From Perkinsus olseni (lineage: Eukaryota; Perkinsozoa; Perkinsida; Perkinsidae), in contig JABANP010000250.1 of the NCBI GenBank assembly GCA_013115135.1, positions 1 through 64,000 on the forward strand: a DNA stretch of 64,000 nt, given 5' to 3'. Of the stretch, positions 1 to 24,132 are shown piece by piece (within the stretch, counting starts at the first letter, position 1; the number at the start of each line of letters is the position of its first letter). A program made the position numbers and the translations under genes. The notes beneath the pieces are model-generated. The model did not search any database. It was not told where the DNA came from and saw only the letters and a program-made list of their open reading frames with translations.

Positions 1-116
1 ATGGGAACTCCAAACTGAATCCTCGGGCATTAGCCCTTACCGCAAGTGAGCGGAGCGAAGCGGTTTTTATTTGTTTTTTTCGTGCTTCGCTCCGCTAAGA
101 TATTTTTGTTTTTCAG

Positions 117-3100
117 GTGCGGAGTCTGAGGAACGCGGATAGAGAGACTTTCGAGAAATTCAAAGAGGTAAAAGATTCTTTCAGTTTTGCGAATTTCCCG
201 CAAAAATTTTCGGAAATTTTCGCGGAAAATTTCGTTTTTTTTCTGGCAGATTCAAGAATGGTGGTTCCGTTACGATACCAATGAGAAAGTTTTGACGCAC
301 AGTACTTTGATGGGAAATAAAGATGCTTTTTCATTCAGGTAGGCAAGAAAGTGTCGCGCGCCACAAAATTATATTTGCCGTCGCGCGCCACGAAATTATA
401 TATACCGTCGCGCGCCACGAAATTATATATACCGTCGCGCGCCACGAAATTATTGGTATCGCGACAGTCGAAAGCGTTTCAGTGGCAAGTGGCGAATCCC
501 GGACGACCCCGACGTGCAGAAGGCCCTCTTCCATAATAAGGCTTGGCTGTACAAGAATGGTATTCATACTTATATATCGGAGATACAGACACCCATGTAA
601 GAGGTCCCGGGTTCGAATCCCGGCGAGAGTATTTTAATGTCTTTTTTAGATTCCCGTTCATTGAGGATATTGATTTTGAAGGGACGTTTCATGACATCGA
701 AGGGTCGGGAGACTTGGATACCATTATACTGGATGAGAATCTTATGTTTTTGAAAGAGTAAGAAATGCGTATCTTAGGCTGATGCTAGGAAGATACGTGA
801 GATAAGATTCCCAAGTTATTGCCTTTTCCGGATGGTATTTCGGGGAGCGCTCGGTCCTGGAGAGTTCGGTCCTGGAGAGTTGAAAGACTCGTTTAGAACT
901 GGTATCTTCAGCCTCTGTATGCGGTCATGTTCGACCTAAGATACTCCCTGGTATCGAACTCTGGGCAGGCCCGCTGCCTGTGAAAATCCGCAGGGAAATT
1001 TTTCTCGATTCTGAAAAATGAAAAATGACTTTCGGGTTTTTAATTTTCGCCCTCTGTACGTTTTGCTAGAATATGTTATCATTGAAAAAAACGCCTCCGC
1101 CGGGGATCGATCCCGGGACCTTTCGATTGTCAGACGAGTGCAAGCCCTTCATCTCTTCTTCCCGGATGTGAGCAAGTTGAAATGCCACGTTTACTCGGCG
1201 TCGGGCTACAACAAAGGGAAGGAACGATGGAAGAGTTCGTTCCATTTAGTCTGGCCGGATCTGATTGTTGACGGTACTATGGCACCTACGATGAGGTAGT
1301 AGTAGAGGAAATGCAAGTGAGAGCAAGATTGCAAGATTTGGGAATCCTCAGGAACGTCACGGTTGAGCATTTTGAAGATTTGACGAGGAGGGATCCGTAT
1401 TTTAAATTGATGTAATGTGCGGGGATCGAACTCGGGTTATCTTGAAAGAGTATCTTATGTCGAAGCGTGCGGAAGATAAGTTTGAGTCAGAGAACAACAT
1501 GGTGTGAGTTCTGATGTTATTAATAACATAGTAATGTTATTTTAGCGTATCCAAGGTCGATCCATGCACATGATGGGGATGTCGGGCAATTTTTAAGATA
1601 CTATTTTTGTCGAAAATTATTTTTTTCGAAATTATTTTTTTCGAGAATTATTTTTTCCTCAGGTTCAAGCGAATGATGAGATTCTTCGACCAAAATATTT
1701 GGGAGAATGTATTTGATCAGACGACGGCGAGTGCTAAGAACGGATTGAGGATGCCATTCTGTAGGTCCCGGGTTCGACTCCTGGCAGGGGTACTTTTAGT
1801 GCAATTAATTTGACTGGAAGATAGGGAAGATGGTCCGAGTGGTGGAATATCTTAGGTTGAAGCGTGCATGCAACCGTATTTGAGGGTATCTTAGGTCGAT
1901 TCGTGTAAGATACGCTTTAGGTTGGGAATTTGATAATGGTTAGTTGAAATATTTTTGACCGGGTTCGAATCCCAGATGTTGCATTTTTATAGGTAATAAA
2001 GTGTCCTGGCATAAAGACGCTGAAGGAAGAAAGCAACCTAGGGTGGAAGATCGATTCTCTCTACCTATTGGTAGGTCGACTCTGGCGTTACATGGGTGAA
2101 TAAGATACGCTGATAGGTCGACTCTGGCGTTACATGAGTGAATAAGATACGCTGATAGGTCGACTCTGGCGTTACATGAGTGAATAAGATACGCTGATGG
2201 GTCGACTCTGGCGTTACACGAGTGAATAAGATACGCTGATAGGTCGACTCTGGCGTTACATGAGTGAATAAGATACGCTGATAGGTCGACTCTGGCGTTA
2301 CATGAGTGAATAAGATACGCTGATAGGTCGACTCTGGCGTTACATGAGTGAATAAGATACGCTGATAGGTCGACTCTGGCGTTACATGAGTGAATAAGAT
2401 ACGCTGATAGGTCGACTCTGGCGTTACATGAGTGAATAAGATACGCTGATAGGTCGACTCTGGCGTTACATGAGTGAATAAGATACGCTGATAGGTCGAC
2501 TCTGGCGTTACATGAGTGAATAAGATACGCTTGATTTCAGGTACGATTGAGTTTGAATTTGTTCGTAAAGAGGTTGATCCGAAAGAATTGGAAATGTATC
2601 GCGAGGCGGAGCGAAGCAGATTTGAGAAGGCTGAGCAAGACTTCAAGGAACGGTTACAGTAACACGACCTAATTCGTATCTTTCACGGATCAACCTAAGA
2701 TTCTCTTTCAGTGCAGCGAAGGATTATCGTGATATCCAAGGGGACCGGACGTCGGCCCACACGAGCGATAAGACGTCGATGGATCGAAGCTTGGCATTTG
2801 CTATGGCACTGAAGAAAGTCGGCGGAGGTAGTATCTTAGGTCGAAGCGTGCAGGAGACGAACGATGAAGATACTTTCTGTGGAAATCTTTTTTGTAGCAT
2901 ATTGAATCCAGTTCTATGAGCGAATCAATAGAATCTTGCTTGTCTTGATAAATCTTGTAATTTCTCAACGCGTTCAGATCCTCGTTACTTATTCGAACTG
3001 AATGCCAGCTGGGTGACAGGACCCCTGGCGAAGGATGATTTGAGAGACATGGAAATTGATACTATTGCAGATTGGATTGCGAAGGGTAATGTTGAGTTGT

Positions 3101-5279
3101 TTTGTATCTTGCATGCTTCAACCTAAGATATCTCGGATATTTAGGTTCTTGCCGGAGAGGACAGTATACGAAGGATGATGTTACAAGGTGGGGGCGAAGC
3201 GAAGCGATTTTTGTTTCGTTTTTTTCGAGTTTTTCCATTTTTTCTGTCAGTCCCAATGAAAAATTTGTGAAGGCTTATGAAGAAGCAGACTTCAAGATAA
3301 TCGAAGAGATCGGTGAGGAGGCTGGTGAAGATAGCGCTCGCCCAGCTGATCGATTTGTCAGGTCTCGACCGAATGAAGGAGACGGATCAGTGGAAGAAGA
3401 TGACGCCTTGTGCTCAGAAGGGAGTGTTGGAGCGATTTCAACAGTAAAAAGGCGGAGCGAAATTTGATCGATTTGGAAATTCGGCGGAGCGAAGTTTTTT
3501 TTATCTCTAGGTATCGGTCGAGACGAGGACTTTCAACTGAGGGAATAACGGTGAGGACTTCGAAGAATAGAAATAGGGGGAAGAAGAAGGTAACCTTTTT
3601 TGTATCTTGCATGCTTTAACCCTGGATATTCTTCAGAAATCTCAGGGAAGTCAGCAGCAGGTTGATGACGAAGAGACGGAAGTGAGAAGTTCAGGCGGAG
3701 CGAAGTTTGATCGATTTTGATTTTCATTCCTTTCAGGTTAAACCGCCAACCGGAAAGACTGGATCGGATTTCGATTATCATCAAGGGGAGTCATGTATTT
3801 GGAGGTGTGGCATAAAGTTGAGCTCTTCTGCATCTTGCATGCTTCAACCCAAGATTCTCTGGCACATGCACGGAGTTCAAGGAAAAAGTTCAACAAAGCG
3901 CTGATGGATGACGACATAGTCGACGCCGTAAGATACCCCAATCGATCGCTCGATCGATTTCCCATCCCCAGGGGTTCGGCGCGTTGCGAAGCTGCTTATG
4001 CCATCCTATCGGCTGCAACTGGTCGCGGAACCGAAACGGTCGGGGCGTCGTGTGGAGGACTCCGCCGGGGAGGGATATGGGTGATATCAAATCTTATAAT
4101 ACTAATGTAATATGGTTGGTATCTTAGCTTGATGCTTGCTCTGGGCAAGATAGGTCGGATATGGAAGATATTAGTCTTAGTATATGGTATCTTAACTTAA
4201 AGCTTGCTGGAGGCAAAATAGGTCGGATGCGGAAGATATTATTTTTAATATATCGATATTAACCGACAAGGAGTACGAACAATTCTCCTTGACAAGATCT
4301 CACTGTAGATCTGCTTGAGGAATCTTCCGTTGCATAGAAATGAAAAGCATATTGTTAAATAGAATTTTGTAAGTTTTTACCATTTATTATCCTGTAGTAT
4401 CTTTTTTATTTCATAGCATTGTAAATTAAAAATCACGTAAAGATCATTGTTCATGCGTATTAACTTTTTCAGGATTCGTTTCACCCCTGGAGAGGATCCG
4501 GATCGAGGATTTGGAAAGAGGGGAAGGACAGGTAGTTGGTAGGGGAATGGTAGAAGAGAGTATCTTTGTGTCACCATGGTATCTTATGGGGAGCTCGACC
4601 TAAGATACGCGACGCAAGAATGATTCGGTCGTATCTTTCAGTTTCGTACCACGATTTGGCCTTCGGGAAGATATGGTGGAAGTGAGGCATTACGAAGTGT
4701 CTCAGAGGGTGATACTCCTCGGTAACAACAATAGCCAGCTTTATAAGGTACTATCTTGACCTATTCTGTATCTAGCACGCTTCAACCTCGGATACCGCAT
4801 CTCTAGGTCGAGCGTGCAAGATACGAACTAGGTTGAGTTGTACCCCTTTTTTTAGGATGTTGCCAGCTTATTGGACGTCGTTTTTGATCTGCCCGACCCT
4901 GCACTGTACAGAACTCTCCCGAGCAGCGAGATGGCCGATGACGGAGACGTCCTGGCTGGAATCATGGATGATGTATCAGCGAGGAATGAACTTCAAGCGT
5001 AAGCGGAGCGAAGCTAGTCGGGTATCTTAGGTTGATGCGTGCTATATACAAAATAAGTTGTGCAAGGGTATACTCGAGAATCCTGAGGTCAAGCGTGCAA
5101 GATACGAAATAGGTTGGGTCAGGTACCGAGATGAATTGGATTCTTCGGACGGTGAGGATGAAGATGATTTCCCGGCTGCGTCACCGGTTGGGCGAGATGA
5201 GGGTTCATTTAATAGTGGCGGTTTGCAGACGCTCAGCGAGGAAGGGGAGAATCTTCCAGAGTTGAAAGAAACGTTTTGA
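117..5279 (+). CDS. Archaeo-eukaryotic primase (PrimPol-like) protein, about 24 exons, 5' partial
   Basis: Template-dependent nucleotidyl transferase (primase/primase-polymerase) of the AEP superfamily, inferred from three ordered catalytic motifs. Motif I hxDxD is IEDIDFEG (exon 650-757), motif II SxH is KSSFHLVWPD (exon 1134-1295), motif III is FDQTTASAKNGLRMPFC (exon 1663-1760). Exons that join in phase: 117-167, 250-338, 483-596, 650-757, 1134-1295, 1352-1411, a doubtful small exon near 1490-1600, 1663-1760, 1993-2070, 2541-2658, 2712-2827, 2978-3085, 3145-3187, 3251-3312, 3362-3443, 3511-3589, 3637-3681, 3737 to about 3803, about 3880-3927, 3972-4106, 4473-4531, 4642-4747, 4856-4998, 5123-5279 (TGA). 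The C-terminal half is Lys/Arg- then Asp/Glu-rich, and no Walker motif was seen, so a fused helicase is not supported. No ATG lies in phase upstream of 117, so the gene starts outside the window. It is followed in the same direction by SF3A3. Confidence 0.72.
339..482 (+). repeat. Intron holding four tandem copies of the CGCGCGCCACGAAATT motif
   Basis: Inside a primase intron the unit GTCGCGCGCCACGAAATT recurs four times between about 352 and 452, with AT-rich spacers of 14-16 bp. The first copy reads ACAAAATT. The same 16-mer occurs singly in many other introns (family B). Other positions, in either orientation: 6089, 7781, 8303, 9655, 11262, 11515, 12387, 21407, 21538, 63880. Confidence 0.85.
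597..649 (+). repeat. Intron built on a tRNA 3'-half (T-arm) sequence
   Basis: This 53-nt primase intron starts GTAAGAGGTC and runs straight into CCGGGTTCGAATCCCGG, a perfect five-base T-stem with the canonical T-loop/B-box, then closes with a T-rich tract and TTTTTTAG. It is the clearest family F intron. Comparable copies in introns lie at 1761-1800, 1945-1985, 6250-6300, 6550-6597, 8265-8290, 9832-9870, 10371-10420, 13200-13258, 13968-13996, 14520-14552, 21800-21844, 22690-22712, 29950-29990 and 30150-30210. Confidence 0.8.
2071..2540 (+). repeat. 42-bp tandem repeat (about 11 copies) that constitutes a whole intron
   Basis: Eleven head-to-tail copies of a 42-bp unit fill the interval between two primase exons. 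The unit begins ATAGGTCGACTCTGGCGTTA and ends GAATAAGATACGCTG. The first copy supplies the splice donor (GTAGGTCGAC) and a short non-repeat tail, TTGATTTCAG, supplies the acceptor. Copies differ at only a few positions (for example ATGAG, ATGGG and ACGAG variants). The unit carries AAGATAC, the same heptamer that ends the family A inverted-repeat element. The repeat stays open on the minus strand, giving a spurious 193-aa ORF. Confidence 0.92.
3086..3144 (+). repeat. Family A inverted-repeat element acting as a complete short intron
   Basis: A 59-nt primase intron whose core is TTGTATCTTGCATGCTTCAA followed by CCTAAGATAT: GTATCTT and AAGATA(C) arms enclose a conserved centre. It is the best example of the commonest dispersed element of the window, roughly 40 bp. 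Further copies in either orientation include 2680, 2830, 3596, 3828, 4115, 4600, 4758, 4800, 5020, 5089, 6795, 6900, 7010, 7126, 7505, 7560, 7925, 8980, 9335, 9500, 11378, 12135, 13395, 13668, 14855, 22985, 32320, 32505, 33970, 37605, 38155, 38237, 38820 and 38900. Confidence 0.85.
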
Positions 5280-5360
5280 TTTTTCGGAAATTTGTTTGGT
5301 TGAAGTATCCTCGGTTGAAGCTGGTTCTCCTCGGGAGAACGTTTGGGGTAGTGGCGGGAA

Positions 5361-5717
5361 GTATCTTCGGTCGAAGCCTGCTCTTCTCAGTAGAGTATCT
5401 TAGGTCGAAGCCTGTTCTTCTCAGTAGAGTATCTTAGGCCGAAGCATGTTCTTCTCAGTAGAGTATCTTAGGTTGAAGCATGTTCTTCTCAGTAGAGTAT
5501 CTTAGGTTGAAGCATGTTCTTCTCAGAAGAGTATCTTAGGTTGAAGCATGTTCTTCTCAGTAGAGTATCTTAGGTTGAAGCATGTTCTTCTCAGAAGAGT
5601 ATCTTAGGTTGAAGCATGTTCTTCTCAGTAGAGTATCTTAGGTTGAAGCATGTTCTTCTCAGAAGAGTATCTTAGGTTGAAGCATGTTCTTCTCAGTAGA
5701 GTATCTTAGGTCGAACC
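5361..5717 (+). repeat. 34-bp tandem repeat, 10 units plus a partial, just upstream of SF3A3
   Basis: Unit starts recur every 34 bp from 5361 to 5701. Each unit reads GTATCTTAGGTTGAAGCATG then TTCTTCTCAGTAGA, with C/T and G/A variants. Each unit contains both the left half of the family A intron element and an acceptor-like TTCTTCTCAG. The array fills most of the 450 bp between the primase stop codon (5279) and the SF3A3 ATG (5729), with the last partial unit 12 bp before that ATG. It could be a 5'-UTR intron, a trans-splice acceptor region or simply an expanded element. Confidence 0.9.
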
Positions 5718-5728
5718 TTAACCTCTCT

Positions 5729-8700
5729 ATGAGTGGCAGCATCGTCGAAAGGATTCGATCGGATTGGGAGGATTTGGAGACGATCGAGAAGGCGGCGTCG
5801 CGGGTGTTGGTCGACCAGTCTATGAAGGCTGGCACCAACCAGACGACCAGGGTAGTAGTGGGGAGGGATATCTTTTGGTATCTCAAATAACCTTGCAGCT
5901 GCGCAACTCGGCACAGAGTATCTTTTGGTATCTTCTTGTCTCCTTGACATATCTTGATGATTTCGTGAAAATCATCTAAATCAAACCCGAGGTTTCTCGA
6001 AGATCCGGATATCGGATCCGGGATCTTTTCGTCTGCGTTCTGCCAGAATGAACTTGAAGATTCGGCTCACTAAGAGTCGACCGGCAATTTCGTGGCGCGC
6101 GAAACTCTCGATATTTCAGATGGCCTATGACTACGCCTTGGCTGATTTGGTCTCTAAAAGTTGCGAGAAGGCGGAGGAGCTCGAGAAGCTTTACGAAGAC
6201 AAAGATGGGCAGAAGGAGGTAGTAGAAATGGCTTAGATGTTAAGGAGGATGGTTGCCCACCGCTAGGTCGTGGGTTCGATTCGCAACGGAAGACCAATGC
6301 ATTGCGAAACTTTCTCGGTGAATTATATACACTCGTTATAGAATATTAATAGTGGAGGGAGATATCAAGGATTCTCTCGAGACAGTCCCGCGGACCTGCA
6401 GTTTATTGAAGAACGCGGATAGCAGTTCCTCATGAACTAGGATATATATTCGCCGCCCGCCGACTTTTATTTATCTTTAGGATGAACTATCGGCTTTGGT
6501 CGGACGGGGAGGAGAAATTTGGACCGCATTTTACCGCAAAATAAAGGAGGTAATCCGATCACCCGGGTTCGATCCCCGGTGATGTCATTTTTGTTAGGCA
6601 CAGGATTACTACGCTCGAAATAGCGAGAAAAATTCCATGCCGAAGGTGAGGGAAAATTTTCGACTCCCCGGGGAATTAGCTAAATTATGGAGTTTTAGGT
6701 ATCCACGGTTGAGTCGTGGTATAAAGGAAGTTTGGCGCGCCAAAGAAGCGAATATAAATTTAGTGGCGAGGAATCTTTCGGCAAGTAAGTATTCAGTTGA
6801 ACCTTGTTCGTATCTTGCATTGTTCGAGCTAAGATGCCTTCGTTAGCCTCGATGCCTCTGCTCTGTCCGGACCTGGACTGAGATTGTGATTGATGTCGAC
6901 CTATTTGGTATCTTCCGTTGCTCGAGCTAAGATTCCCTCGTCATTTTCCATTCAACCGGCTCTGTCAGAGGATGTGACGAGATACTGACCTCAGTTGAAA
7001 TGAACCTATTCTGTATCTTACATGCGCCGAGCTAAGATACTCTTCTGCAGATACGTTGACATGCACGAGCTCTATGATCAGTTTGTGAACTTGAAGAAAT
7101 ACGGCGAGTAAGGATATGCCGGAAGAATCTTAGGTTGACCCTTGACATACACAAAATCTCGCCCCTCTCAGGTTCCGTCGGAAACAATTCCTCAGTACCC
7201 TGTGGGAAAAATATGAAAAGAAAATGGAAAGCCGCGCAGAAAAAGGGAAAAAATCGGAGGAAAAAATTCTTTCGCAAAAAGAATTTTTGGCGGCTCATGA
7301 AGGCGACTACAACGAGATCGATTATATTTCCTATTTGAAGACGTTCGAACAGTTCCATCATATTCCGAGGCACCTCAAGTAGGCCGGGCGCGCGCTTTTT
7401 CGTCGGTTAGATGAGAATTAGCTATATTGTGGCAGGTATAAACAGAAGGATTATTTGGAGTATTTGAAGGCCTTGCAGAAGTACCTTAGGTGAGTAGAAG
7501 GTCGACCTATTTTGTATCTATCGTGCTTCGAGCTATGATACCCTGTCGTTTTGCTCCGACCTCTTTCGTATCTTCCATGGGTGAAGCTAAGATACCTTCG
7601 ACCGTTCATCGTAGTTTTTCTCCGTCTCAGGGGATTCATTCAACGACAGCGACCGATCTTTGATATCGAGAAGCTAGAGAAAGAATCGGAAGAAGAATTC
7701 CAGGAGAGGTGGCAGGTAAGTCCAAATCGATCAGCTGATCGATTATTGAAGTGGGGTATTTTTTATAGGATATTTCTGTCACGCGCCACGAAATTCAGAG
7801 ATGCCATCTTCAGGCCAAATCCGTGCAGGGTTGGGGTGCTGGATTCACGCGGAACTCCCGACTCTACTGCCCGCCCACTGATCGACTCTTTGCAAATGAA
7901 CAAGCTCTGGAGGTAGCAACTTGACCTCATTCGTATCTTGCTGGAGTCGAGCTAAGATTCTTCTATTCAGGGCCATAAGAGGGGCAAGGAGTTCAAGAAG
8001 GCCGCCGCTAGGATGGCTAAAATGGAAAATGGAAAATGTTAAAATGGCTAAAATCCGGAGGAAATCGAGGCTTTGAATAAACTCTCGGAGAAGAGAGACA
8101 TGGAACTCGCTCGACTGGAGGTGACACGAAAATTGCAAAACATGAATCGCTTCGCTCCGCTGTTGATGATAATGTTTTTATCAGGTTATCATACAGAAGT
8201 ACAAGGAGACTCTGGCCGACACTATTGATGATACTGTACAGTACTTGACGGTCAGACAGGCGAGGTGCGAGGATCGATCCGGGGACCTTTCGGCTACCAG
8301 AATTTCGTGGCGCGCGGTAAAATCTTGGCCCTCCTCAGGACGTTGGATGAGATCGAAACTGATATATGGTATGAAGAGAACGGCGGAAGGGAGACGTTCG
8401 AGGACGAGAAGGATGATGTTTGGGATAAGAAGGTGAGAAGATACTTCTCGTCGTTCGATTAACGCGCCCGTGTGAGAAGGTCTGGCTTCGACGTGCTAAC
8501 CCCCACTGGGAGGACGACCTTTGTTTCCGGTCTCTATTTATATAGCGAATTAGTGTAGTGGTATTTACGTGGGCTTTCTACCGATGCATCCGGGATCAAT
8601 TCTAGCCTGAGGCATGTAAAGGGTGTTTTACTGCTGGGTGATTGACTTTGATCGTGGTCCCACCGGCGAGTAATGAGTGTTTGACGAAGAAAATTGGGCC

Positions 8701-9590
8701 CGACGAGCTCGACATCACAGAGAAGCTCGATAGATCCTCGACGTGTGCAACCAGAATTACAACGCGAAAGGACCTTCAAGGAGCCCCTCAGCCGCTGAGC
8801 CGCGATTTCCGAGGCGTCGCATTTTCTCGCACTCACGCCGCAGTGGAAGACCCTTTACGGTCAATTCTATCTGTTCTCGCGATCTGTCGAAGATCATCAG
8901 TCTTTCTCTTCCCACTCAGGAGCAAGATTCCGACAGCGAGTCTGAGGACTCCGACGATGGCGACAATCGCGCACTGTAAAGAGTATCTTAGGTTGACTCA
9001 TGCACTCGACGCGGATTCTCTAAGATACAATCCCCTTAACTTACCTCTCGGCTGGGACGGCAAGCCGATTCCTTTCTGGCTCTACAAACTCCATGGCTTG
9101 GGCAAACCGTTCAGGTGACGTCCGGTATCGATCGTCAGGGCGCGCGCTTTTTTCATTGTTCATTGTCGCAGGTGCGAAATTTGTGGTAATTATACGTACT
9201 GGGGCCGAAGGGCTTTCGAGCGGCACTTCACGGAATGGCGGCACGCGCATGGAATGAAGTGCTTGAGGATTCCGAATTCTAAGCACTTTCACGATATTAC
9301 TAGGATAGAAGATGCGGTGAGTGGCTTGGAAGTTGACCTGTTTTGTATCTTGCAAGGGTGAGTTTGAGATTCTTAGATTACTCTGTATGAGAAGCTGAGG
9401 CGCGAGCAGGCTATCCAAGGGTTCGATCCTGATACCGATATTGAGTGCGAAGATAACATGGGTAACGTGATGAATCAGAGAACGTAAGTCCCTTCGACCT
9501 ATTTCGTATCTTGCACGAGTCAACCTAAGATGCTCTTCATGTGATCTACTCGCTAGGTACCAAGATATGCTCAAGCAGGGGCTCATCTAA
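5729..9590 (+). CDS. SF3A3: Splicing factor 3A subunit 3 (SF3a60 / Prp9), 18 exons
   Basis: Subunit of the SF3a complex of U2 snRNP, which acts in branch-point recognition in the nucleus. Exons joined in phase: 5729-5851, 6120-6218, 6481-6549, 6598-6645, 6699-6784, 7051-7107, 7172-7378, 7436-7489, 7631-7715, 7814-7912, 7971-8120, 8185-8264, 8339-8432, 8920-8975, 9025-9114, 9172-9316, 9377-9483, 9557-9590; about 560 codons (human is 501 aa). Diagnostic blocks: [14 protein letters not shown] near the N-terminus, TVRQART, then [20 protein letters not shown], the matrin-type C2H2 finger [15 protein letters not shown]...[13 protein letters not shown], and the C-terminal MLKQGLI. Exon 7971-8120 holds two in-frame TAA codons (8040, 8049); a GC-AG intron at 8001-8060 would remove both and keep the frame. 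Family A, B, C, E and F motifs occupy its introns. Start ATG matches the usual N-terminal length. Confidence 0.95.
6550..6597 (+). repeat. 48-nt SF3A3 intron made almost only of a tRNA T-arm
   Basis: The intron reads GTAATCCGATCA, then CCCGGGTTCGATCCCCGG, then TGATGTCATTTTTGTTAG. The flanking ATCA and TGAT can extend the T-stem to about nine pairs. Little is left besides splice signals and the tRNA-like hairpin. Confidence 0.85.
7716..7813 (+). repeat. Intron with composite C + B motifs
   Basis: SF3A3 intron containing AAATCGATCAGCTGATCGAT (family C, palindromic) followed about 40 bp later by CACGCGCCACGAAATT (family B). The same order and a similar spacing recur at 12308-12405, and the reverse order at 9655-9720, so C and B travel as one composite of about 85-100 bp. 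Confidence 0.8.
8535..8605 (+). repeat. Degenerate tRNA-like relic in an SF3A3 intron
   Basis: The stretch has a D-arm-like GTGTAGTGGTATTT and a T-arm-like CCGGGATCAATTCTAGC, resembling tRNA-Gly/Glu A and B boxes. Anticodon and acceptor stems do not pair convincingly. It lies in the large intron 8433-8919. A related fragment, CCAGGATCAACTCTAGCC, is near 19305. Confidence 0.45.
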
Positions 9591-9755
9591 GAAGACGATA
9601 TTACGTTGGTTTATTTTCCGATCGGGAAGCCTCGTGTGCCGCGTTGAGTACATAAATTCGTGGCGCGCGGTCAGCTCCGCAACCTAGTTGTCAATGCAAA
9701 TCGATCGCCTGATCGATTATAGAAATCCTGTCCGAATCTCCACAAGTTGTTTGTT

Positions 9756-10532
9756 ATGATACTTTTCGGGGCTACGTTACTTGTCGCCCTTGTAGTATCA
9801 TTTCAAGGGTGTAGTCCAGAGAAGCCAATGCGTAGGTGGTGGGATCGAACCGTGGACCTTCCGATTACCCACTTCCCTCAGTTCCTCAGCCGGCTACCAA
9901 TATACCGGTACACATCCCCTGGTCCTCTCAAATCGGCGGTGAGTTTCCTGATGGGATCGGCTGCCCTCCGGTGTTCGAAATTTCTCTTCACTTGGTGTGG
10001 CGAGGGAAAAAATGAGAAAAAACTTTTTGCGTGATTTTTTCAGCAGATGACAATGGTTCTTTCGACAAGTTGGTTCATCTGTCAGGATCGGATCCAGGCG
10101 GACTATTTCGTTACGCTGGACCGGGGCCTTTTATCGGCGAGCAAGGCCTCATCGTGCTCGCCTTCGGCGAGTACGCGCTGATCGATTTAATGCAGGAAGG
10201 GGATACCATCTTGCTCATCTTGCATATCTTGAACTTTCTCAGGTATATGGGTTCGTTGGATAGGAAGAGTATATTTGTCGAGGCCCGGAACATATCTTAT
10301 AAGGTGCTGCACGAGGAGGTCATTATGGACCTCTCTGGTATACCGTTCTGGATAAGGTCCATTATAGAAGGTACGTTGACTAGGGTTCGAACCAGCGACC
10401 TTCGGCATGACAGTCGCGTTCTCTCCTCGCTCAGTTGCAAATATCACGTACGCGACGGCGGCTACTATTCGCCTCACATTCCCCTACCCGTTCAACGGCA
10501 CTACGATGGAGCTTCAGCGCGTCCCAAAATGA
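9756..10532 (+). CDS. Small protein with N-terminal signal peptide/anchor, function unknown
   Basis: Four exons join in phase: 9756-9831, 9882-9938, 10044-10370, 10435-10532 (TGA), giving about 185 aa. The first ATG codon at 9756 opens MILFGATLLVALVVSF, a typical signal peptide or signal anchor, so the product should enter the secretory pathway. A second hydrophobic stretch, ILLILHILNFL, lies mid-protein, but that piece (about 10200-10240) resembles the family A element and may really be a non-canonical intron. I recognise no domain. Introns 9832-9881 and 10371-10434 are antisense tRNA 3'-half types. It starts 165 bp after the SF3A3 stop and converges with the F-box gene. Confidence 0.6.
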
Positions 10533-11054
10533 TCATTCTTTTTTCATTGTCATTTCGGTAAATCTCAATATTATGACATCAGTCTTGTTGTGTTGCTCAA
10601 AGTACCCCTGCTGAGAAGCTCATTTTGTTTCTTGCATACTTCAACCTAAGTCAACTTCAATGATCGACGAATGCGCGCCGTCAGCTCTGTGATGGAGCGA
10701 GTCAGCTACGGGCCCAACGCCGTCGGCGGTGTAGTAAGAATGGCTACTTGACGATGAACTCCGTGCTGCCCATCGTCTTGTGCATGCGTTCAAAGCTAAC
10801 ACTGTTTAGGATTTATATATTGAGGACCGTGGAGGAATAGCAAGAATGCAAGATCCTGTAGTCTTGTCATTAACTATTCTCATTACACATTTATACAGTC
10901 ACTTATTATCAGAGGCTCTGCGACAAGTCAGGAGAGGTCGGTTACTGAAGTGCCCAAACTCCCGACTAGAACGAAGTGAAAAGACTCTACGCTGTGCCCG
11001 AATGCTGCGGCCACCACCGGGCTGTCAACACAAAATATCGGTCAACGAAAAAAA
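10533..11054. other. Convergent intergenic region
   Basis: Between the small secretory gene (+) and the F-box/LRR gene (-). It holds a family A half element near 10630 (TTTCTTGCATACTTCAACCT) and no convincing exon. Confidence 0.6.
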
Positions 11055-14000
11055 TCATATAACATCGTCTTCGGACACCTAGAAGCATTGAGATATTAAA
11101 AACGCCGGGGTCGCAGATTCCTACCAAACCGGAGAGGGCGTCGTCATCAGACACGTCCACGGTGGGGTCGAAGTCTTGATCGTCCTCATCGTCACTCTGA
11201 AATTCTTGATTTTGCAACTGCCATATGGGATTCCTGAGAGAAAAAAAACTTCGCTCCGCTGGAATTTCGTGGCGCGCGGTAATACCGGCTCATCATTTCC
11301 CGCAATTCAGTTTGTTCTCGTTCGACTTCACTTTCTGTCACCTCTAGTGCCTTACCTCGCCGAAGCCTGACATGAAGTATCTTAGCTCGACCCATGAAAG
11401 ATACAGAATAAGTCGGGATGGTCACCGTCACCTCTTAGGGACACTGTCATCTCCTCCGACAAGGGCCGTCATTCCTATCTGCAAGTCCTACGTTGAAGCA
11501 CCCTGAACCTTTCACTGCGCCACGAAATTATTCACCCACCGGGTTGCCATCATCTTCATCGTCATCGTCGGAGCTGCCGAGCCCATTGGGGGTGCCGATC
11601 GACGCCGCGCCATCTTCGACCTCGGATACGCTTTCGTCCGACCCACAGTCCGCCACCAGCGAACCTACCGACCTCAGGATGAGGTGATTGAGGAATTGAG
11701 GATCGCTGTCAACTGATCGATTTCGGTTATCAGCACGCGTGCACATAATTCCCCCTCGGAAGGCCTTCATCAGTTCCGTTGCCTACTGATGTCGTTGGCT
11801 GATAGCAACGCGAAGTTGCGCGACTCACAGCCAACGCTGTGCAAGTTGCAATTTATAATCGCAGGTTAATACACCAACAGTAATCGATTCTAGTAGACAA
11901 TGCCAAACTGTCACCGGCGTTGATGGCGAGATAGCTGAGTCGAGAAGACATTCTTGCCCGTGAGCAAAAGCGTATCTTTTGGCTTCGTCATGAGCAAGGA
12001 TGTTCGACCTCCTTTCTCACCTGCATCTTCGCCTTCCGGTTCGTCTTCTTGGAAGGAAGTTGATGAACTGGAGCGAACAGAGCGCTGTTGGAAGTCTAAG
12101 ATGCCTTCGGTTGCCTGAGTGGTCGATTAACTGACTTATTCTATATCTTGCATGCTCCGACCTTGGATTCCTCTAGCAAATTAACTGTCCTCTCCACAGC
12201 ATCGGCTACAGACCGGCACGGCCTGTTGCCGGCCAGGGCGAGATGCACCTTCTCAGCCGAAGATTCCGCCCACAACTGGACATATACCATCATCAGCTCG
12301 GGGACGTCCAAATCGATCACCTGATCGATATTGGATGCTCTGCCCCGGAAACTCCGGTCCTGCACACCCACTTCGTCAGTTCCACCGCGCGCCACGAAAT
12401 TAATTTGATTGTCGCTAAGGTCGACGTCGGTAAGCCTCTTCGCCTTGGACAATGCAACGAGGAGAGTAACAAACCTACAACCGTATTAGGGAATAGCAAG
12501 ATTGCAAGATTTCAAGATTTCCTACCCGTATGTGGAAATATAGTTTCCCATGAGACTAAGCGTTTCGAGCGCTGGAAAGCCGCCCGAACTGAGCGACTGA
12601 GCGATCGGATAGACGCCAGAGTCAAACAAGCAATTCTCGTCCAACTCCAAGTGTTTAAGGTTCTGAAAATCGATCACGAAGGCGAGCGCTTTTCACAATG
12701 ACAAGTTACCTGCAATCTTGAACATGTTTGGATGAGGTTGAAAGATACGCCATCGAGGAAGGCGAAGGGAATCTTTTCGATGCAACTTGTAGGTTGATCT
12801 GGAGTAACATCAGAAAAGATACGGGAAATTGTTATATAACGGTAAAAAATCCAAATCGATCAACCGTTTCATCAGATTTACGTGCGATATCTTCACTAAC
12901 AGCAGTAACAAAGTCCAAGCAAGGATTCCCCGAGCTGAGCCGGCGATCGTCAAAATGCTTCGTCGACTCGCAGCCGACCTTCTGGAGGGCACCCAGATGA
13001 CATTCGGTCATAACCTGCGTTGAGGAATTGCAAGATCGCAAGATTTCAAGATTCCTTACCAGTTTAGTGAGATCCTTGACTCTACCGATCGCACTGATGA
13101 GATTAAGGAGCGCGTTTGAGTATTGGCCGATATACACCCGATCGACCGCCTCCGACGTCGAACGCTTCCTTTTGGGGACTCTACCATCAGTCGCTGAAGC
13201 GGAGTGAAAAAAGCTTGCCCTGGGGATCGATCCGGGGACTTTCCGATTACGCACTTACCATGCTGACATCTGGTTAAGTAAACCCTCCTCAGTGCAGAGG
13301 GGGCGAAGACGCATTGCTCGAATCGGAGGACTTGCAACTCGGCGAAGTGGGGCACAATGGATGAGAGGAACTGAAGCACGCGTCACTTCGTCTAACCTGT
13401 TTCGTATCTTCCACGCTTCAACATAAGATACGCCGATTCTTTCGGGCGAGTTGACACATATTTTAGCAAAGATTCACAGAAAAGATTTTCCGGAAACTTC
13501 CCGCTTCTGTTTTTTCTTACATGTACAAAAGAAGGTCCCAGTTGGCATCGCTCAAAGATGAGGCAGCGAACTCTACTAGAAGTTGATCGTCTGAGTGGCT
13601 CCACCAGCCTCAACCAACACTCTCGACCTCTCTGAGAATGGATATCGGTCAAACTGGCTCTATCTTGACCTATTTTGTATCTCACCATGTCAACCTAAGG
13701 ATGCGCATTCCAAAGTCTGACTTACAATATTCCGAACTGACAGGTTCTTCAAATTAGCGTAATCTCCTAGTCGGCGAAAACTACACTCGTTGGCGTCTGT
13801 CAACTGAAACCCGGAAAATATTAAACCTGAATCGCTTCGCTCCGCTCAGAAATCAGAAAACTTACAGGATTTTTCGGGTCATCCATAAAATCACGGTAAT
13901 CCTCCTGAGCAAGTGTACCGTTGAGAACCCGTGGGAAGGAGTAGGGGTCAACGCCGATCATATATCTGAGGTCCCGGGTTCGATCCCTGGCAGGGTCAAC

Positions 14001-15102
14001 TCGCGATATTCCCCCAAAAAATTGCGGAGCGAGCGAAGCGAGCGGAGCATATACTGTCACTTCTGCGTTTTTTGTGCGTTCGTTCGTTCGTTCAAATTAT
14101 CTCTCCACGATTATGTCGATTCAACTCGCGAGACACATAACATTCGAAAGCACGCGGTTTGTGTATTCTATAAAAAATACGGAATCGCTCTTATCCCTGT
14201 TCTACCGAGCAAAACCGTCGTGGACCGTTGTAGATGAACTCGAAAAAATACGGAAAAAGCCCAGGCTGGGGTTCGAACCCGAGACTTTGTCCCGAGCTCC
14301 GCTTTTTTCGTTACGAAGGCCTAGTCACCACTTCCCTCAACCGAGATGCATTCTACTGAAGCATTGAATGACGAAATATCTTGAAAACTCGGGAAAACAA
14401 ATTTCCGATTTCCAGCTCACCTCCCGAGAGTTCCGCTTGACTCCGTCGTTGTCGCAGAGGCGTCAAAAGTAACGCTTTCGATAGCATCTCGGACTAAATC
14501 TGAGAAAAACAAAAATGCCGGGCGTGGGGATCGAACCCGGGCGGAGACTTACTGCAGAGCTTTCGGCAAGTCGGTGAGACTTGAGAGCACCTGAGGAAGT
14601 AAGACCAAGAATCGAGGTGATACGGAGGTTGAAGTCCGGCGTGTGTGCGGGGGCGTTTACCAACCACTAAAATCGAGTGACAGAATCTCTGCCTTTCAAA
14701 AGAATTTTTGATCATAAATTTCTGGGGAATTCTCGGAAATTTTTTCGCTATTTTCTCCAATCTGAATCGACTCACAGCTGCTCCTTCGGAAGGTAGCTGA
14801 ATATCTGCAACCAAGCGTCATGATTGAGGTCGGGCATCAAGTATAACTGGTGGGAGTATCTTAGGTTGACCCCTGAAAGATACGAATATATGCCGGTATT
14901 CACCATGGCTACCGCCGCCAAATTTACGAATTGGGACGAACAGCCGCGGACTGGACCCCGAGAAATACCCACCTGCACTCAGCGAGGCTGAGTTAACTGC
15001 CACACAAAACCATAAGTATCTCAGAAAACTCACAAGAGCATTGAAGATCGCCAAGTTGTTCTTGGTACAACCCGGAGATCTACGGTAACCTAGGCTGACC
15101 AT
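11055..15102 (-). CDS. F-box and leucine-rich-repeat protein with acidic tail
   Basis: Likely substrate-recruiting subunit of an SCF-type ubiquitin ligase, inferred from F-box plus LRRs. F-box: LNHDAWLQIFSYLPKEQL (exon 14776-14837) continuing LCSQVSPTCRKLCS (14553-14590). Further exons: 14421-14499, 13866-13965, 13726-13803, 13521-13631, 13259-13370, 13060-13193, 12882-13014, 12710-12798, 12526-12662, about 12170-12474, then 11540-11705, 11432-11487, 11286-11366, 11125-11233, 11055-11078 (TGA). LRR consensus is clear in NLKHLELDENCLF and RLTDVDLSDNQI. The last 100 residues are Asp/Glu-rich. The start is either ATG 15102, through an intron holding a family A copy, or ATG 14837. The region 11706-12170 is not resolved. 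Intron 13015-13059 is a 45-nt family D type and 14500-14552 a tRNA 3'-half type. Confidence 0.75.
13015..13059 (-). repeat. 45-nt intron made of family D motif
   Basis: On the minus strand the intron reads GTAAGGAATCTTGAAATCTT, then GCGATCTTGCAATTCCTCAA, then CGCAG. The same AATCTTGAAATCTTGCAATC block forms the intron at 12475-12525 and recurs at 1320-1350, 20205-20235, 31385-31410 and 49914. Confidence 0.85.
14255..14350 (-). repeat. tRNA-derived repeat, copy 1
   Basis: Read on the minus strand it has a T-arm TCTCGGGTTCGAACCCCAG ending CCTGGGC and an upstream GTAACGAAAAAAGCGGAGCT block. A second, diverged copy lies at 35820-35910 with the same order of parts, so this is a dispersed tRNA-derived repeat rather than a working tRNA. 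It sits in an F-box gene intron. Confidence 0.6.
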
Positions 15103-16400
15103 GGCAACTCTGTCGAGACACTATTTCCGGCAAGAATGCGAAAAATTTCTACATTATTTGCAAGGAAGTGGTCCGAAACAGGAGAGAAATACAAACTGCT
15201 GCTCTGAGACGGCAGCGAGTGGTCAAGGCAGTCCGAATATTCTTTGCCGGCTCCCGCGTCCGGGAGCGCAGAGTGGATGCCCATCCTCTACGCGTGCAGC
15301 AGTCAGTCCCAGTGTGGCTGACACAATGAAAATTTTCATCTTTCTGTTCGAAATTTTCAAAAATGTTCGAACATATAACAGAATCTATTTTTCTGTTCAA
15401 ATGCGGAAAGCGCGCGTCCGAAGAGAAAAATTGAAAAAATGGCTGTTCTTTGAGCGAATTTGGGGCATTTTCATGAATATTTTCTGCCACAATATTGCGG
15501 TCTAACCGACTAATCATTAGTCACTAATGTACGGCGGAGCTCCGAGCTATACAGTATCACCGTGCACTGTGTAGATTCCGGGTGTCAGTGCTTGTGCTCA
15601 AGTCAAACAGAGTTGTATTTGACACGACTTGATTTCGGGGGAGCTGAACTCCCGATCCGGGAGTCTCGGAGTTTAAAGAGACCCGGACAACAAGGCCTGC
15701 ACCTTTCGTCCAACTTCTGCACTATGAAGAAAATTCGCGAAAAACAACAGCTGCCCCGGCCTAGGTCGTGAGATATGGGATATTCACGTCGTGCATTTCA
15801 CGACATGAATTTCCTGTTGATAAACCTGATAATTATCTCGGAGACAAGGCCATACGTTGCTGTGATATCCTGTGTTCATGCGTAGCTAGCTTGTTGCGCG
15901 ACGCGCATGATACTGTACGACTTGCGCAGATGGACGGTCACCTACCGGCAGTAGGCTTAGCCTACTAGGCTACCGCCGAGCACCAACGGTTCTAATTTAG
16001 AGCGCTTGCTGGACTAAGAAGGATTGGCAAAGCCTATAAATCTCGTTCACTCAGTACTGCTCCTATGGAGTGTCGAAACGTCGCTGATATCGTGATGGCC
16101 GATATTGATTTATCCTAAATCTGCGACTTGAGTACCCTGGTTCCGGGAGATTTCTGCATTTTCGTCCCTATTTTTCCGTAAATTTTCTATTTTTTCTTAT
16201 TTTTCTTTTCTTTCCGTCGAAAATTTTCAAGCGAAAACTTTCCACAATTTATTCTGTCCGTCAGCCACACTGGTCAGTCCCGAATCCAGAGGTAGAATCG
16301 GGCTCACCCGCGGCTTCGGTCAGTACGTCGGGCGGGATTAATCGTCTCAGTAGATTCTGTATATTGCTCGATATGGAACTACCGTGGACTACGCTCTTGT
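15103..16400. other. Region with no supported gene
   Basis: Between the F-box gene start and the decayed secreted-family copy. Only short open frames without family resemblance occur. AT-rich stretches near 15330-15490 and 16140-16250 share a TTTTC-rich style with introns elsewhere, so undetected exons cannot be excluded. Confidence 0.5.
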
Positions 16401-19441: not shown

Positions 19442-22400
19442 TCAATCTTCATCGTGATGGTGATGATGACGTCGGCGCTCGCGGCTGCGCGATCTGTTCC
19501 TTCGGGGCTCTCGACGCTCGCGGTCTCTATCGCGGTCACGACTGAAGAGGAGAAAAAATATACTCGAAAAAAATACAATTATCACTAGCCTGTCTGATCT
19601 AGTCAATAAAAAAACCGAAAGAACTGAAAAATTCTGATTCCTTTTGTTTTCGGAGTGGAAGCTCGAACACGATCGATACCAGACAGGTCGAATATGGTTC
19701 GAAAAAGACTAGAAAGATACGCGAAAAAATCATGAAGATTTAGAAATTTCTGAAACTGAAAAATCACCATTAGTCTGTCTAGTAAATGAAAAAACATCGG
19801 AAAATCTCGAAAATTCTGATTTTTTCCCGTTTTCGGGAAAGCTGTTGACATGAAAAATAGTCCAAAAAAGACGACAGAGCTACGCGAAAAATATCGTCGG
19901 CATTCGCCTTTCTAGCGAGAGGCACGAACCAAAACAGTCACTAGATTCTGACCAAAGATTCGCATCCGTAAGATGCTCTTCCCCATAGGTTAACTTCGAA
20001 GTAAAAGATACCAAACTCAGTGCTGTCATACAAGGTCCCCGGTTCGAATCCTCCCAGCGACATTTTTCCATATTTAACTCACCGTGATTCCCCAGCATCC
20101 TCGTCCCTAGCCCTAGCACGATCTCTATCACGATCTCTCACGCGAGGACCAAACTCATCAAACGGCCTGTGAGGGGGCGGGCCACCATCATCATACCTGA
20201 GCGTTGAGGAATTGCAAGATTGCAAGATTGACCAACATCCACTCACCTAGATCCCTTTCCTTTACCCTTGCCCCAGCTGGACTCGTACGGAGGTGGTCCA
20301 CCGTATCTGGGCGAAATCATCCAAGCTGGGACAAATTTACCCAATTTTCGTGAAAATTTCTCTCACAAATAAACGCTCATCCCTCGTAATCCACACTGTC
20401 ACTTCTCTCCCTCCCCCAAGACAATCCAACCAACGAAGACTCGAGCCTGCAATCCCGTCGACGATCGCACAGTTGTGGTTGAATCGCTCAGGCCGTCGAA
20501 CGACAGCGGCAAAATTCCGCGCAAACATCCGTAAAAATTATCTCTTCCACGCACAAAAAATGACTGATGACAGCAACATCTCCGTGAAGGGCAAAAGCGT
20601 CAGCACAGAAAGATGCCGCTGATTTTGTAATACAAGAGCCAAGCTAAGATACTCCTGCAACATTTCCGTTATTAACGATACCACATTTCCACCAAATCCC
20701 GTAATCTATTACCCCTTTCTGCCCTTCCCAAAGTCGTCCATGCCCCATCTCGGTGGCGGTCCTCCCTTTCCTTTTCCCTTCCCTTTGCCATAGCCATCAT
20801 CAAACATCATACCACCTTTTCCCTTACCCCAAGATGACATCCTCGGCGGGTACCCGGAGTCCCATTCGGGCGGGCCAAATGGCGACGGCGGAGGACCGCC
20901 CGGCGGACCCTTCTTAGACTTCGGTTTGGCAATCCTGAAGAAATATCTTTCATGCTCGACCTTCACAGGTAGAGCTCAGGAAACTAATGATACTGGTATC
21001 ATACTCATATTTTCACCGCTGCCACACAGCAGCCATTGAAAAAATAAAATTCAGTAAACTTTTCCTAGAAAATCCGAAAAAAATTTTTGGAAAATCTATT
21101 CGATCTGCCTAGCTTACGTGAAACTACCAAATCCCCTTGTCAAGTCGCTAAGATCGATTATAAACCTGATACTCATCACAAAGATACTCAAGAGTACTTT
21201 AATGATGCTTATCATTGACAACCTCGGCGACAACAATTATACGCAACCAAACCCCGCCCTCTTCTATCACCTTCCACTTCCCCGTCCACCGCCCATCCGG
21301 CGAGGTATCCATCCCGAAACCGTCCTGCCTCGCTCTACATCAACGAGGACTCGGCGCCCGTCGATTTTGATACCATCAGCCTAACGGTAACGAAAAATAG
21401 GGGAGAATTTCGTGGCGCGCGACGTACGTTTTTGTAAGCTTGCTTGAGGCTGCCTTCGTTGTCATATTCGATAAAAGCATATCCGCGACTTCTACCTTCC
21501 TTATCATGGACGATGGTAACCTGAAGATACCAAAAATTACCGCGCGCCACAAAATTGGACCAGTCGCATATCTTTCGTCTCGATCATACGCCAGCTCAAC
21601 CTCAAAGATATGTCCCGAGAAGCGTAACCAGGTGAGTATCTTTGCGCACAGCGAAGAATCTTACCTTTCGTATCGGACCATATTCCCCAAAGATGTGCTG
21701 CAGTTGCTTCTCCGTCGTCTCATACGCGACTCTCGCAACGAAGAGAGTTTTGAAGGGATCCCCAGATACCTGACAAAGTGGAGAATCTTCTTGCGCACAG
21801 CGAAGATTTCAAGATAGGTCCCCGGTTCGAATCCCCCCGGTTACTTTATCATTATTCTGAGGCTTATAGTCCGCTCGTAGACGTTCAATCAACTCCTCGT
21901 ATCTGAACAGGAATTCATCCTGGACACCCAACGACCCCGGTTCGATCCCGACCCCGGGCATCTCACTATATCAACAAAAATTAAGTCTGCACCCTTGCAC
22001 CAGTCAGCTCAACCATAATTTCTCGCTGTCATTGACAGCAACTCCGGCTTAGAAGTTTCAATTTTCTGCTTCCCATCCTCGGTTAGGCTAGCGGGAATTA
22101 GCCACAACACCACCGATGGCTGGCCGGGTGTAATATCGGGCTACTCACAGCTCGCGTTTTATAGTACACAAAGTGTCCACAAGACGCTAATACCAACTTT
22201 TTCACAACTAATTCAAAATCTCACGACGGCAGCCCAAAGAACCACGTCGACTCAGCAGCCTCTCGGTCGTTCACATCCCAAACCAGATCGGGAAGGGACA
22301 AAATTGCATCCTGCAGTCGACAACATAAGCAATTTTGCGTTAACCACGGGTCCACATAAGATACGAAATTTCGATTACGATAACGGCTCGCGAGAGAGCG

Positions 22401-23161: not shown

Positions 23162-23984
23162 GGTGGAGGTAAGAAAAGGGAAGCTGAAGAGTAGTAGTAA
23201 AACATCACAATCAATGGACGATGACCAACAAGAAGTCGTTGGGGAAATAGAAGTTTGAGTAAGATTGCAAGTGAGCGAACAGCGCAGGTTATATTTTCGC
23301 TCGCCTGGCATTGCTGAAGTGCGGATACCTGTGCCACATCGCGTTGCGTGCCTCCCACATGGCGCCTCAACGTGGCGTGGGAGTGATACTCATTCGGAGT
23401 ATGCGAAGCTAGACCGACTACACCGAACTCGACGATCACCCAACGGGTGGTGACTGAGTGGCGGTAAAAATTCCCTCCTCCCCACTTTCCATCCATCTAC
23501 GCCCCCTTCTCGTCTCTGCGATGTCGAAACGCCGCTACGATTACTACCAATTCCTACTACTGTGTCACAGTGCGTGTGCCACATCGATCCACTGGATCGG
23601 TTACTTGACTCGATTGGCCCCTACACTAACCGGGCGGCCCGTGCCTAAGTATCCGATTCACGTGAGAAGTCCCGAGTAGCAAGGAGGGGTTGTTAACCAC
23701 TAGGGGGCTCAGGTCAATGGTAAAGTGGAATCCTGAGATTCTATCAATAATAAGTCTGATAAAGTCATCACCTAGCGTCGAGCTGACCTCAGGTTCCATA
23801 GGTGACAGCGATTGGACTATTAGTTGAGCTGCACCTTGTGCACCTGCTGCAGGTGACCTGCAGCACTACAGGGGTCATTTCAGAAAATCCGTCCCTGGGT
23901 GGTGGTGGTGGTCGACCACTCAGCAGTCGCACGTAGGTACTCTACGCCCAATATGTTACATTCACTTTCGACTCGAAAGTTTCG
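23162..23984. other. Upstream region of U1-70K; no gene seen
   Basis: No supported coding exon. A decayed copy of the 49477-49833 gene begins at its right end. Confidence 0.5.
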
Positions 23985-24052: not shown

Positions 24053-24132
24053 TCTTATAATTTGTCATGAGCAAGCTTCGACTTCCAACCCAACACGTGA
24101 TTCCAAAGCTGATAGAAGTAATTTCCCCTCAT

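What the first reader, a model, noticed from the sequence alone, without database searches (positions are those of the whole stretch)
117..15102. Introns are built from six recurring short motifs: candidate introner families
In the primase, SF3A3 and F-box genes almost every intron of 44-150 nt is splice signals plus one or two recurring words. A: GTATCTTAGGTTGAA...AAGATAC inverted repeat. B: CGCGCGCCACGAAATT. C: AAATCGATC...GATCGATTT palindrome. D: TTGCAAGATTGCAAGATTTC. E: GCGGAGCGAAGC. F: tRNA 3' half. The same word occurs in introns of unrelated genes and both orientations, but only rarely in exons. Introner-like elements are known in other protists; a set of six, including palindromes and tRNA pieces, in one 64-kb window is to my knowledge unusual.
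Basis: partly seen in the sequence, partly recalled or inferred. Interest (0 to 1): 0.92.

Follow-up and report, generated by a model that had tools for sequence, protein, structure and literature searches.

The report
Micro-repeats fill Perkinsus introns
In a shellfish parasite, most introns of two neighbouring genes consist largely of a few short repeated words scattered in many copies over the genome; the words are real and surprisingly dense here, but they also lie between genes, and nothing here shows that they created the introns.

Summary
The window is Perkinsus olseni. In two genes whose exons are fixed by homologous proteins (a primase with an AEP_C962R domain, and SF3A3), 31 of 38 introns carry a word A-G, against 2.3 expected (maximum 8 in 300 simulations); 29 without G, which I defined from these introns. 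In these genes 52 hits are intronic, 5 exonic (p=1e-7). Words A, B, D, E, F have 324, 747, 252, 167, 61 genome-wide matches; reversed controls 0. The introner reading is only partly supported. On 200 kb of another contig 2 of 71 short predicted introns carry a word, and words are no commoner in introns than in other non-exonic DNA. End-to-end intron similarity is met by 1 of 820 pairs, weakly. Fourteen hand-picked copies persist in 23 of 23 comparisons with ~5%-diverged duplicate contigs, unconserved. Yet 14 of 14 short introns holding one A, C, D or F module leave only 11-40 nt without it, less than nearly all ordinary introns. Best reading: dispersed micro-repeats that fill, perhaps found, introns.

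The parts
47..116 (+). primase intron: word E and its inverted copy at the other side
   Evidence: acceptor from P0131/P0132; the donor at 47 set by hand, the aligner chose a GC donor at 42
339..482 (+). primase intron: word B in tandem (27-nt period, 3.7 units)
   Evidence: 9 of 10 proteins aligned place it
597..649 (+). primase intron of 53 nt: tRNA T-arm/3' end (F) plus splice signals
   Evidence: 9 of 10 proteins aligned place it
758..1133 (+). primase intron: A in both orientations and F in reverse
   Evidence: P0130-P0132
1296..1351 (+). primase intron of 56 nt: word D
   Evidence: 6 of 10 proteins aligned
1412..1662 (+). primase intron with A
   Evidence: 5 of 10 proteins aligned
1761..1992 (+). 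primase intron: F, A, A, F
   Evidence: 7 of 10 proteins aligned
2071..2540 (+). primase intron: 11 copies of a 42-nt unit that looks related to A (by eye)
   Evidence: the A word with up to 3 mismatches does not hit it, so it counts as an intron without a word
2659..2711 (+). primase intron of 53 nt: one A copy (reverse), 37 nt of it
   Evidence: P0130, P0133
3086..3144 (+). primase intron of 59 nt: A (reverse)
   Evidence: 5 of 10 proteins aligned
3313..3361 (+). primase intron of 49 nt: word C
   Evidence: P0130, P0133
3444..3510 (+). primase intron: E and C
   Evidence: P0130, P0133
3590..3636 (+). primase intron of 47 nt: diverged A (36 nt aligned)
   Evidence: P0130, P0133; not counted as a word hit
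3682..3736 (+). primase intron: E and C
   Evidence: P0130, P0133
3928..3971 (+). primase intron of 44 nt: C palindrome
   Evidence: P0133 only
4748..4855 (+). primase intron: A, and a second partial A by eye
   Evidence: P0130 only; P0133 gives a longer intron with the same acceptor
4999..5122 (+). primase intron: E and A, with a second partial A by eye
   Evidence: P0130, P0133
5360..5715 (+). tandem array of A (34-nt unit, 10.5 copies) between the primase and SF3A3 genes
   Evidence: gene ends
5852..6119 (+). SF3A3 intron with B in reverse
   Evidence: acceptor in 11 of 11 references, this donor in 6 of 11
6219..6480 (+). SF3A3 intron with an F word
   Evidence: 11 of 11 references
6550..6597 (+). 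SF3A3 intron of 48 nt: F plus splice signals
   Evidence: 11 of 11 references
6785..7050 (+). SF3A3 intron with A, three copies by eye
   Evidence: 11 of 11
7108..7171 (+). SF3A3 intron of 64 nt: A (forward)
   Evidence: 11 of 11
7379..7435 (+). SF3A3 intron with word G
   Evidence: 11 of 11
7490..7630 (+). SF3A3 intron with A, two copies by eye
   Evidence: 11 of 11
7716..7813 (+). SF3A3 intron with C and B
   Evidence: 11 of 11
7913..7970 (+). SF3A3 intron of 58 nt: A (reverse)
   Evidence: 10 of 11
8121..8184 (+). SF3A3 intron with E (reverse)
   Evidence: 11 of 11
8265..8338 (+). SF3A3 intron with F (reverse) and B (reverse)
   Evidence: 11 of 11; (the shorter F word does not hit it)
8976..9024 (+). 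SF3A3 intron of 49 nt: A (forward)
   Evidence: 10 of 11
9115..9171 (+). SF3A3 intron with word G
   Evidence: 11 of 11
9317..9376 (+). SF3A3 intron of 60 nt: diverged A (20 nt aligned)
   Evidence: 11 of 11; not counted as a word hit
9484..9556 (+). SF3A3 intron: A (reverse)
   Evidence: 11 of 11
12490..12510 (-). word D in the F-box/LRR gene region (intron status not verified)
13024..13044 (-). word D in the F-box/LRR gene region (intron status not verified; the frame also reads through)
20208..20228 (-). word D, present in both duplicate contigs C284 and C199

Best explanation
P. olseni carries at least six families of very short (about 13-40 nt) dispersed repeats. They were copied into non-coding DNA at DNA level, in either orientation, and some copies were then multiplied in place as tandem arrays. 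Exons are purged of them, so within genes they survive in introns. In parts of the genome rich in them (such as this window) they have become the bulk of short introns, with little beyond the splice signals left around them. Family F resembles tRNA 3' ends. How the copies spread is inferred, not shown: capture of short repeated fragments during break repair fits the very short length, the unlike flanks and the differing end letters of the F copies somewhat better than one transposase family.
For: 31 of 38 introns carry a word against 2.3 expected. Genome-wide matches against zero for reversed controls. No orientation bias of A, 12/11. Exon depletion in the two genes (5 of 57 hits in exons or introns, p=1e-7) and on C112 (4 of 52, p=0.011). 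Also found outside introns: A array at 5360-5715 and 42 of 52 hits on C112 outside predicted genes. In-place multiplication: arrays with 34- and 42-nt periods, and a stretch near 32.3-32.5 kb, probably an intron but not verified, with extra A units in contig C199. Not conserved between duplicate contigs: 27 of 632 sites differ inside, 71 of 2458 outside, p=0.097. F copies differ in the letters after the T-arm (31 copies seen). An A copy lies in a predicted intron of a p23 gene on C112; the alignment of the spliced protein to a solved p23-type structure (residues 8-114) runs across that junction at residue 96, although the Pfam CS match (9-80) does not reach it.
Against: 14 of 14 short introns holding one A, C, D or F module leave only 11-40 nt without it, while ordinary short introns have a median of 48 nt and 3 of 71 are below 40: a plain insertion into a ready-made intron should give longer introns. 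Post-insertion shrinkage has to be assumed. No insertion event was caught.
Confidence: 0.6

Rival explanations
1. True introners: the short elements insert into exons and are spliced out, creating the introns that consist of them.
For: Short introns with one A, C, D or F module are mostly module: remainders of 11-40 nt, 14 of 14. Two intron pairs in different genes are similar at E<=1e-5 (2659-2711 with 9484-9556; the p23 intron with 7913-7970). High intron density: 17 accepted introns in SF3A3, whose model has 541 residues (the gene finder counts 18).
Against: End-to-end criterion met by 1 of 820 pairs, at E=0.006. No preference for introns over other non-exonic DNA on C112. 23 of 23 comparisons with duplicate contigs show the copy. 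C112 genes hold many short predicted introns without any word (69 of 71).
Confidence: 0.2
2. Functional motifs: binding sites or splicing/chromatin signals kept by selection (F contains the B box bound by TFIIIC; that identification is recalled).
For: Short recurring cores with free flanks, many copies. Three of the 29 introns folded have a strongly structured RNA (z below -3).
Against: Cores diverge at least as fast as their surroundings (4.3% against 2.9%, p=0.097). A arms are not kept by compensatory changes: 3 paired and 4 unpaired double changes against 97 single ones. No general excess of RNA structure: median z -0.18 (29 introns up to 160 nt, 5 of them without a word) against 0.09 on C112, p=0.49. 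No orientation bias of A.
Confidence: 0.08
3. Debris of larger transposons or SINEs: each word is a piece of a longer mobile element.
For: Longer repeats exist here: a 1.09-kb and a ~980-nt element with inverted ends, and a ~310-nt repeat (14017-14326) with a tRNA-like stretch and an E-like GC-rich end.
Against: None of the four longer repeats examined contains A-E at the thresholds used (E up to 1 mismatch); one F word with 3 mismatches lies in the 310-nt repeat. The flanks of the copies look unlike each other (by eye). Other longer repeats of the genome were not examined.
Confidence: 0.12

Closest known systems
Introners (Gozashti et al. 2022, PMC9860276; outline, passages and one method section read)
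   Same: Similar sequence in introns of non-homologous genes, both orientations, canonical GT-AG
   Different: Similarity mostly stays inside the intron; elements are 13-40 nt, also between genes and in tandem arrays; creation of introns not shown. Perkinsus is not mentioned in the main text
Introner elements of Amoebophrya A25/A120 (Farhat et al. 2021, PMC7789003; passages read)
   Same: Related alveolate lineage; repeats with inverted parts inside introns; there too a minority sits in canonical introns
   Different: There: mainly non-canonical splice sites, 8-20-nt inverted repeats between the two intron ends and 3-5-nt direct repeats at the borders. Here: GT-AG introns; paired ends seen by eye only in 47-116, not tested in every intron
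MITEs (recalled)
   Same: Short, dispersed, inverted repeat in A
   Different: Much shorter; target-site duplication not testable without an empty site; no parent element found in the repeats examined
tRNA-derived SINEs (recalled)
   Same: F resembles tRNA
   Different: F holds only the 3' part, with differing end letters, and no common body

Membership tests
Introner | Introns in non-homologous genes share sequence (E<=1e-5) | tested here: met
   4 of 820 pairs of 41 introns at a nominal search space of 1e9, 2 of them between different genes
Introner | Similarity reaches within about 10 intronic nt of both ends in both introns | tested here: not met
   1 of 820 pairs, and that one at E=0.006; single local alignments only, the paper's comparison of ends was not repeated
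Introner | At least four such introns per family | tested here: not met
   sample of 41 introns only, not the genome
Introner | Presence/absence at orthologous sites (intron gain) | tested here: inconclusive
   23 of 23 comparisons (14 copies, two ~5%-diverged duplicate contigs) show the copy; no sister species available
Introner | Commoner in introns than in other non-coding DNA | tested here: not met
   C112: 6 of 48 non-exonic hits in introns, p=0.69; introns there are ab initio and missed genes count as other DNA. Not a criterion in every published case
Amoebophrya introner elements | Non-canonical splice sites (in most, not all, published cases) | tested here: not met
   all 38 accepted introns are GT-AG (one donor set by hand); the aligner allowed only GT/GC donors and AG acceptors, so other sites could not appear
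MITE | Terminal inverted repeats | tested here: inconclusive
   A: 66 of 111 copies have a second arm within 2 mismatches, control mean 38, maximum 53; the other families were not tested
MITE | Target-site duplication | not tested
   no empty site was found to define it
tRNA-derived | tRNA sequence in the element | tested here: met
   F copies carry T-arm letters, often with an oligo-T after them (by eye); ARAGORN and Rfam call no tRNA at the F copies in the two genes

The most novel reading that the evidence does not exclude
A genome with a battery of at least six unrelated micro-introners of 13-40 nt, smaller than any introner I know of (recalled), some resembling tRNA gene 3' ends whose oligo-T run can serve as the pyrimidine tract: short DNA fragments captured at breaks in exons and made harmless by splicing.
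Probability: 0.18. Interest if true: 0.85.

Novelty: new variant of a known kind. Interest (0 to 1): 0.52.

Why it matters
How new introns arise and what they are made of is a long-standing question. Here several introns of 44-60 nt consist mainly of modules that recur tens to hundreds of times in the genome, in a lineage for which I found no reported introner: the library search for Perkinsus with introner returned only the Amoebophrya paper. If sister genomes show gains, this would be a natural series of intron birth from fragments of only 13-40 nt. If not, it is a caution: intron-intron similarity can come from general micro-repeats.

Tried and rejected
Hairpin-driven splicing: as a group the introns are no more structured than ordinary ones (three single introns are), and A arms show no compensatory pattern. 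Known RNA families: none of the Rfam matches falls on a word (whole window at gathering score; bases 1-20700 at E up to 3). Viral source: no exact match of one D-based and one A-based pattern in viral contigs. Paralogue presence/absence: the two SDR genes show aligned but diverged intron-like stretches and no words by eye; six other aligned pairs gave three indels of 15 nt or more, none holding a word by eye. A strict two-armed E pattern gave 0 matches genome-wide. A first gene finder fused genes and was discarded; the second recovered 17 of 17 SF3A3 introns, but SF3A3 was in its training set, so that is no independent test, and it missed the primase. A 29-nt indel that takes part of a C copy and of its flank (C199) looks like a loss. 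Rows dropped before counts: uncertain stretches 3805-3927, 4473-4747 and 8001-8100; tandem A copies at 5300-5710; the partly deleted C copy and the stretch near 32.3-32.5 kb; the introns with E, G or B, with several modules, or longer than 110 nt, and the first row of the A list (intron 47-116, an E intron scored falsely). The 71 ordinary introns come from genes scoring above 100, so the p23 gene (one A intron of four) is not among them.
Full report
What the sequence is. The window is base 1-64000 of contig C169 in a 61.5-Mb, 968-contig genome. An open frame at 46667-47548 is 100% identical over 96% of its length to Perkinsus olseni FOZ60_006176, a spliced-leader word known from Perkinsozoa (recalled) occurs 146 times with up to one mismatch, and the first gene matches P. 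olseni FOZ60_006165. The length of contig C284 (54990) equals that of the record holding FOZ60_008827, so this is probably the same assembly. For SF3A3 no hit named Perkinsus is among the 120 listed of 2042.

Gene structures. For the two genes I did not rely on ab initio introns. SF3A3 (5729-9590) was aligned with splicing to 11 of the 120 listed proteins, 38-44% identical to the assembled query. Most introns were placed identically by 10 or 11 of the 11. Weaker ones are 5852-6119 (this donor in 6 of 11) and 8433-8919 (this donor in 2 of 11; 7 chose 8418). The primase (AEP_C962R domain) was aligned to four P. olseni models of three locus-tag series and six distant homologues. Where P0130 and P0133 disagree I took one of them: 2828-2977, 3928-3971 and 4081-4472 are from P0133, 4748-4855 from P0130. 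The first donor (47) was set by hand. Deposited models may themselves be predictions, so RNA evidence is still missing.

The words are there. 31 of 38 introns hold at least one of A-G: 17 of 21 and 14 of 17. In 300 first-order Markov simulations of the same intron DNA the mean was 2.3 and the maximum 8. G was named after seeing these introns; without it 29 of 38. Hits: exons 5 in 3516 nt (1.96 expected from simulation), introns 52 in 5124 nt (2.58 expected), intergenic 12 in 452 nt, all A, uncertain stretches 3. The exon share is far below chance (5 of 57, p=1e-7). Two further introns (3590-3636, 9317-9376) carry A too diverged for the word but aligned to its consensus, and 2071-2540 is an array of a 42-nt unit that looks related to A.

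Genome-wide. Matches on both strands, against the same pattern reversed: A 17-mer, exact, 324 to 0; B 16-mer, exact, 747 to 0; D 21-mer with up to 2 mismatches, 252 to 0; an extended E 16-mer, exact, 167 to 0; F 19-mer, exact, 61 to 0. C and G were not counted genome-wide.

But not an intron property in general. C112 was chosen because a hit showed it to be long. On C112:1-200000, 2 of 71 short introns predicted in well-scored genes hold a word. A set of 55 short introns of eight genes there, A-bearing ones included, shares no more 9-mers than shuffled introns (18; shuffles mean 15, maximum 27). With slightly different word definitions, 52 hits fall 4 in predicted exons, 6 in predicted introns, 42 elsewhere: exons are depleted (p=0.011), introns are not enriched over the rest (p=0.69). 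The rest includes genes that the finder missed, so this test is blunt. Word density is 28 per 10 kb in the window, highest at its left end (66 hits in 1-8000), and 6 per 10 kb on C112. The loose F word adds background in both (49 of 182 and 57 of 120 hits).

Shape of the families. A: GTATCTTAGGTTGA-AGC-N-TGC-AAGATAC followed by GAAATAGGTCGA in good copies; the second arm starts 21 nt after the first in 38 of the 66 copies that have one, out of 111. B: a 16-18-nt core with free flanks. D: a 27-nt core ending TTCCTCAACG. E: a 12-14-nt core. F: T-arm and a short run, often to an oligo-T, with differing letters where the tRNA acceptor strand would be. C: AAATCGATC with a palindromic or GC-rich partner. 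These shapes were read by eye from the listings.

Age and constraint. Contigs C199 and C284 duplicate parts of window 18992-34007, mostly at 94-95% identity, either haplotypes or a segmental duplication. I fetched 16 short pieces around copies that I chose. In the nine window stretches analysed (15 pieces), all 23 comparisons of 14 hand-bounded copies show the copy, and the copies differ at 27 of 632 sites against 71 of 2458 outside (p=0.097; outside may include exons). So these copies are older than this split and decay freely. In the stretch left out, near 32.3-32.5 kb, the C199 version carries additional tandem A units.

Do the elements make the introns? Nine short introns with one A (eight here, one in the p23 gene on C112) and five with one F, C or D module leave 11-40 nt, median 26.5, after subtraction of the module; 71 ordinary predicted introns of up to 80 nt have a median of 48 nt and 3 are below 40 (p=4e-9). 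Spans of the F, C and D modules were set by hand; introns with only E, B or G were left out, since these words are shorter. Either these introns began as the element, or introns shrank back after insertion. A simplified form of the published introner test (similarity to within ten intronic bases of both ends) is met by 1 of 820 pairs, at E=0.006; several pairs fall just short, such as 2659-2711 with 9484-9556 (43 nt, 88%). I therefore do not file them as introners, but the working resemblance stands.

Literature. A search for Perkinsus with introner returned one paper, on Amoebophrya. Of 27 papers with introner and intron gain 25 were listed, of 35 with Perkinsus and intron terms 15; I saw the listings only, apart from the three papers named here. 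Gozashti et al. (outline, passages and one section read) does not name Perkinsus in its main text; its supplementary species list was not seen. A 2025 Amoebophrya genome paper reports mainly GT-AG introns (passages). I saw nothing on Perkinsus introns built of repeats in the listings either. Most subscription papers and preprints are not held, so absence from print is not proven.

Noticed in passing
window 58741-60389: Tandem array (period about 166 nt) of nine tRNA-Arg(TCG) genes and one tRNA-Leu(TAG).
   Followed up: no
window 27358-28443: 1.09-kb repeat with 27-nt inverted ends (GGGGCCGTATGCGGATACTGATTCGAG); nine nearly full-length copies at 94-97% listed, and partial ones up to 99%: a young DNA-transposon-like element.
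   Followed up: partly
window 15304-16283: About 980-nt repeat with inverted ends (CCAGTGTGGCTGAC); four nearly full-length copies at 92-95% listed.
   Followed up: partly
window 14017-14326: About 310-nt repeat, 26 other copies listed at 89-94%, with a tRNA-like stretch and a GC-rich end resembling word E: a SINE candidate.
   Followed up: partly
window 53744-53881: 138-nt repeat with 18 other copies listed at 78-88%.
   Followed up: no
window about 17.0-17.5, 24.6-25.5, 41.7-42.7, 46.6-48.9 kb: Family of predicted proteins (MKLILVF...); for the copy at 46667-47548 the 9 database hits are all P. olseni, and no Pfam family matches.
   Followed up: partly
window 1-5276: Single-base frame differences between this assembly and the primase models of other isolates, read by eye; sequencing error or allele not decided.
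   Followed up: no
L017-L036 joined, 31.6-38.4 kb: Three similar Hsp70-type genes in tandem (91-93%) on C112 (the name is by eye).
   Followed up: no
window 168-249: Primase intron without a word but with a long inverted repeat; a sub-threshold Rfam match to CopA (E=0.51) lies on it.
   Followed up: no
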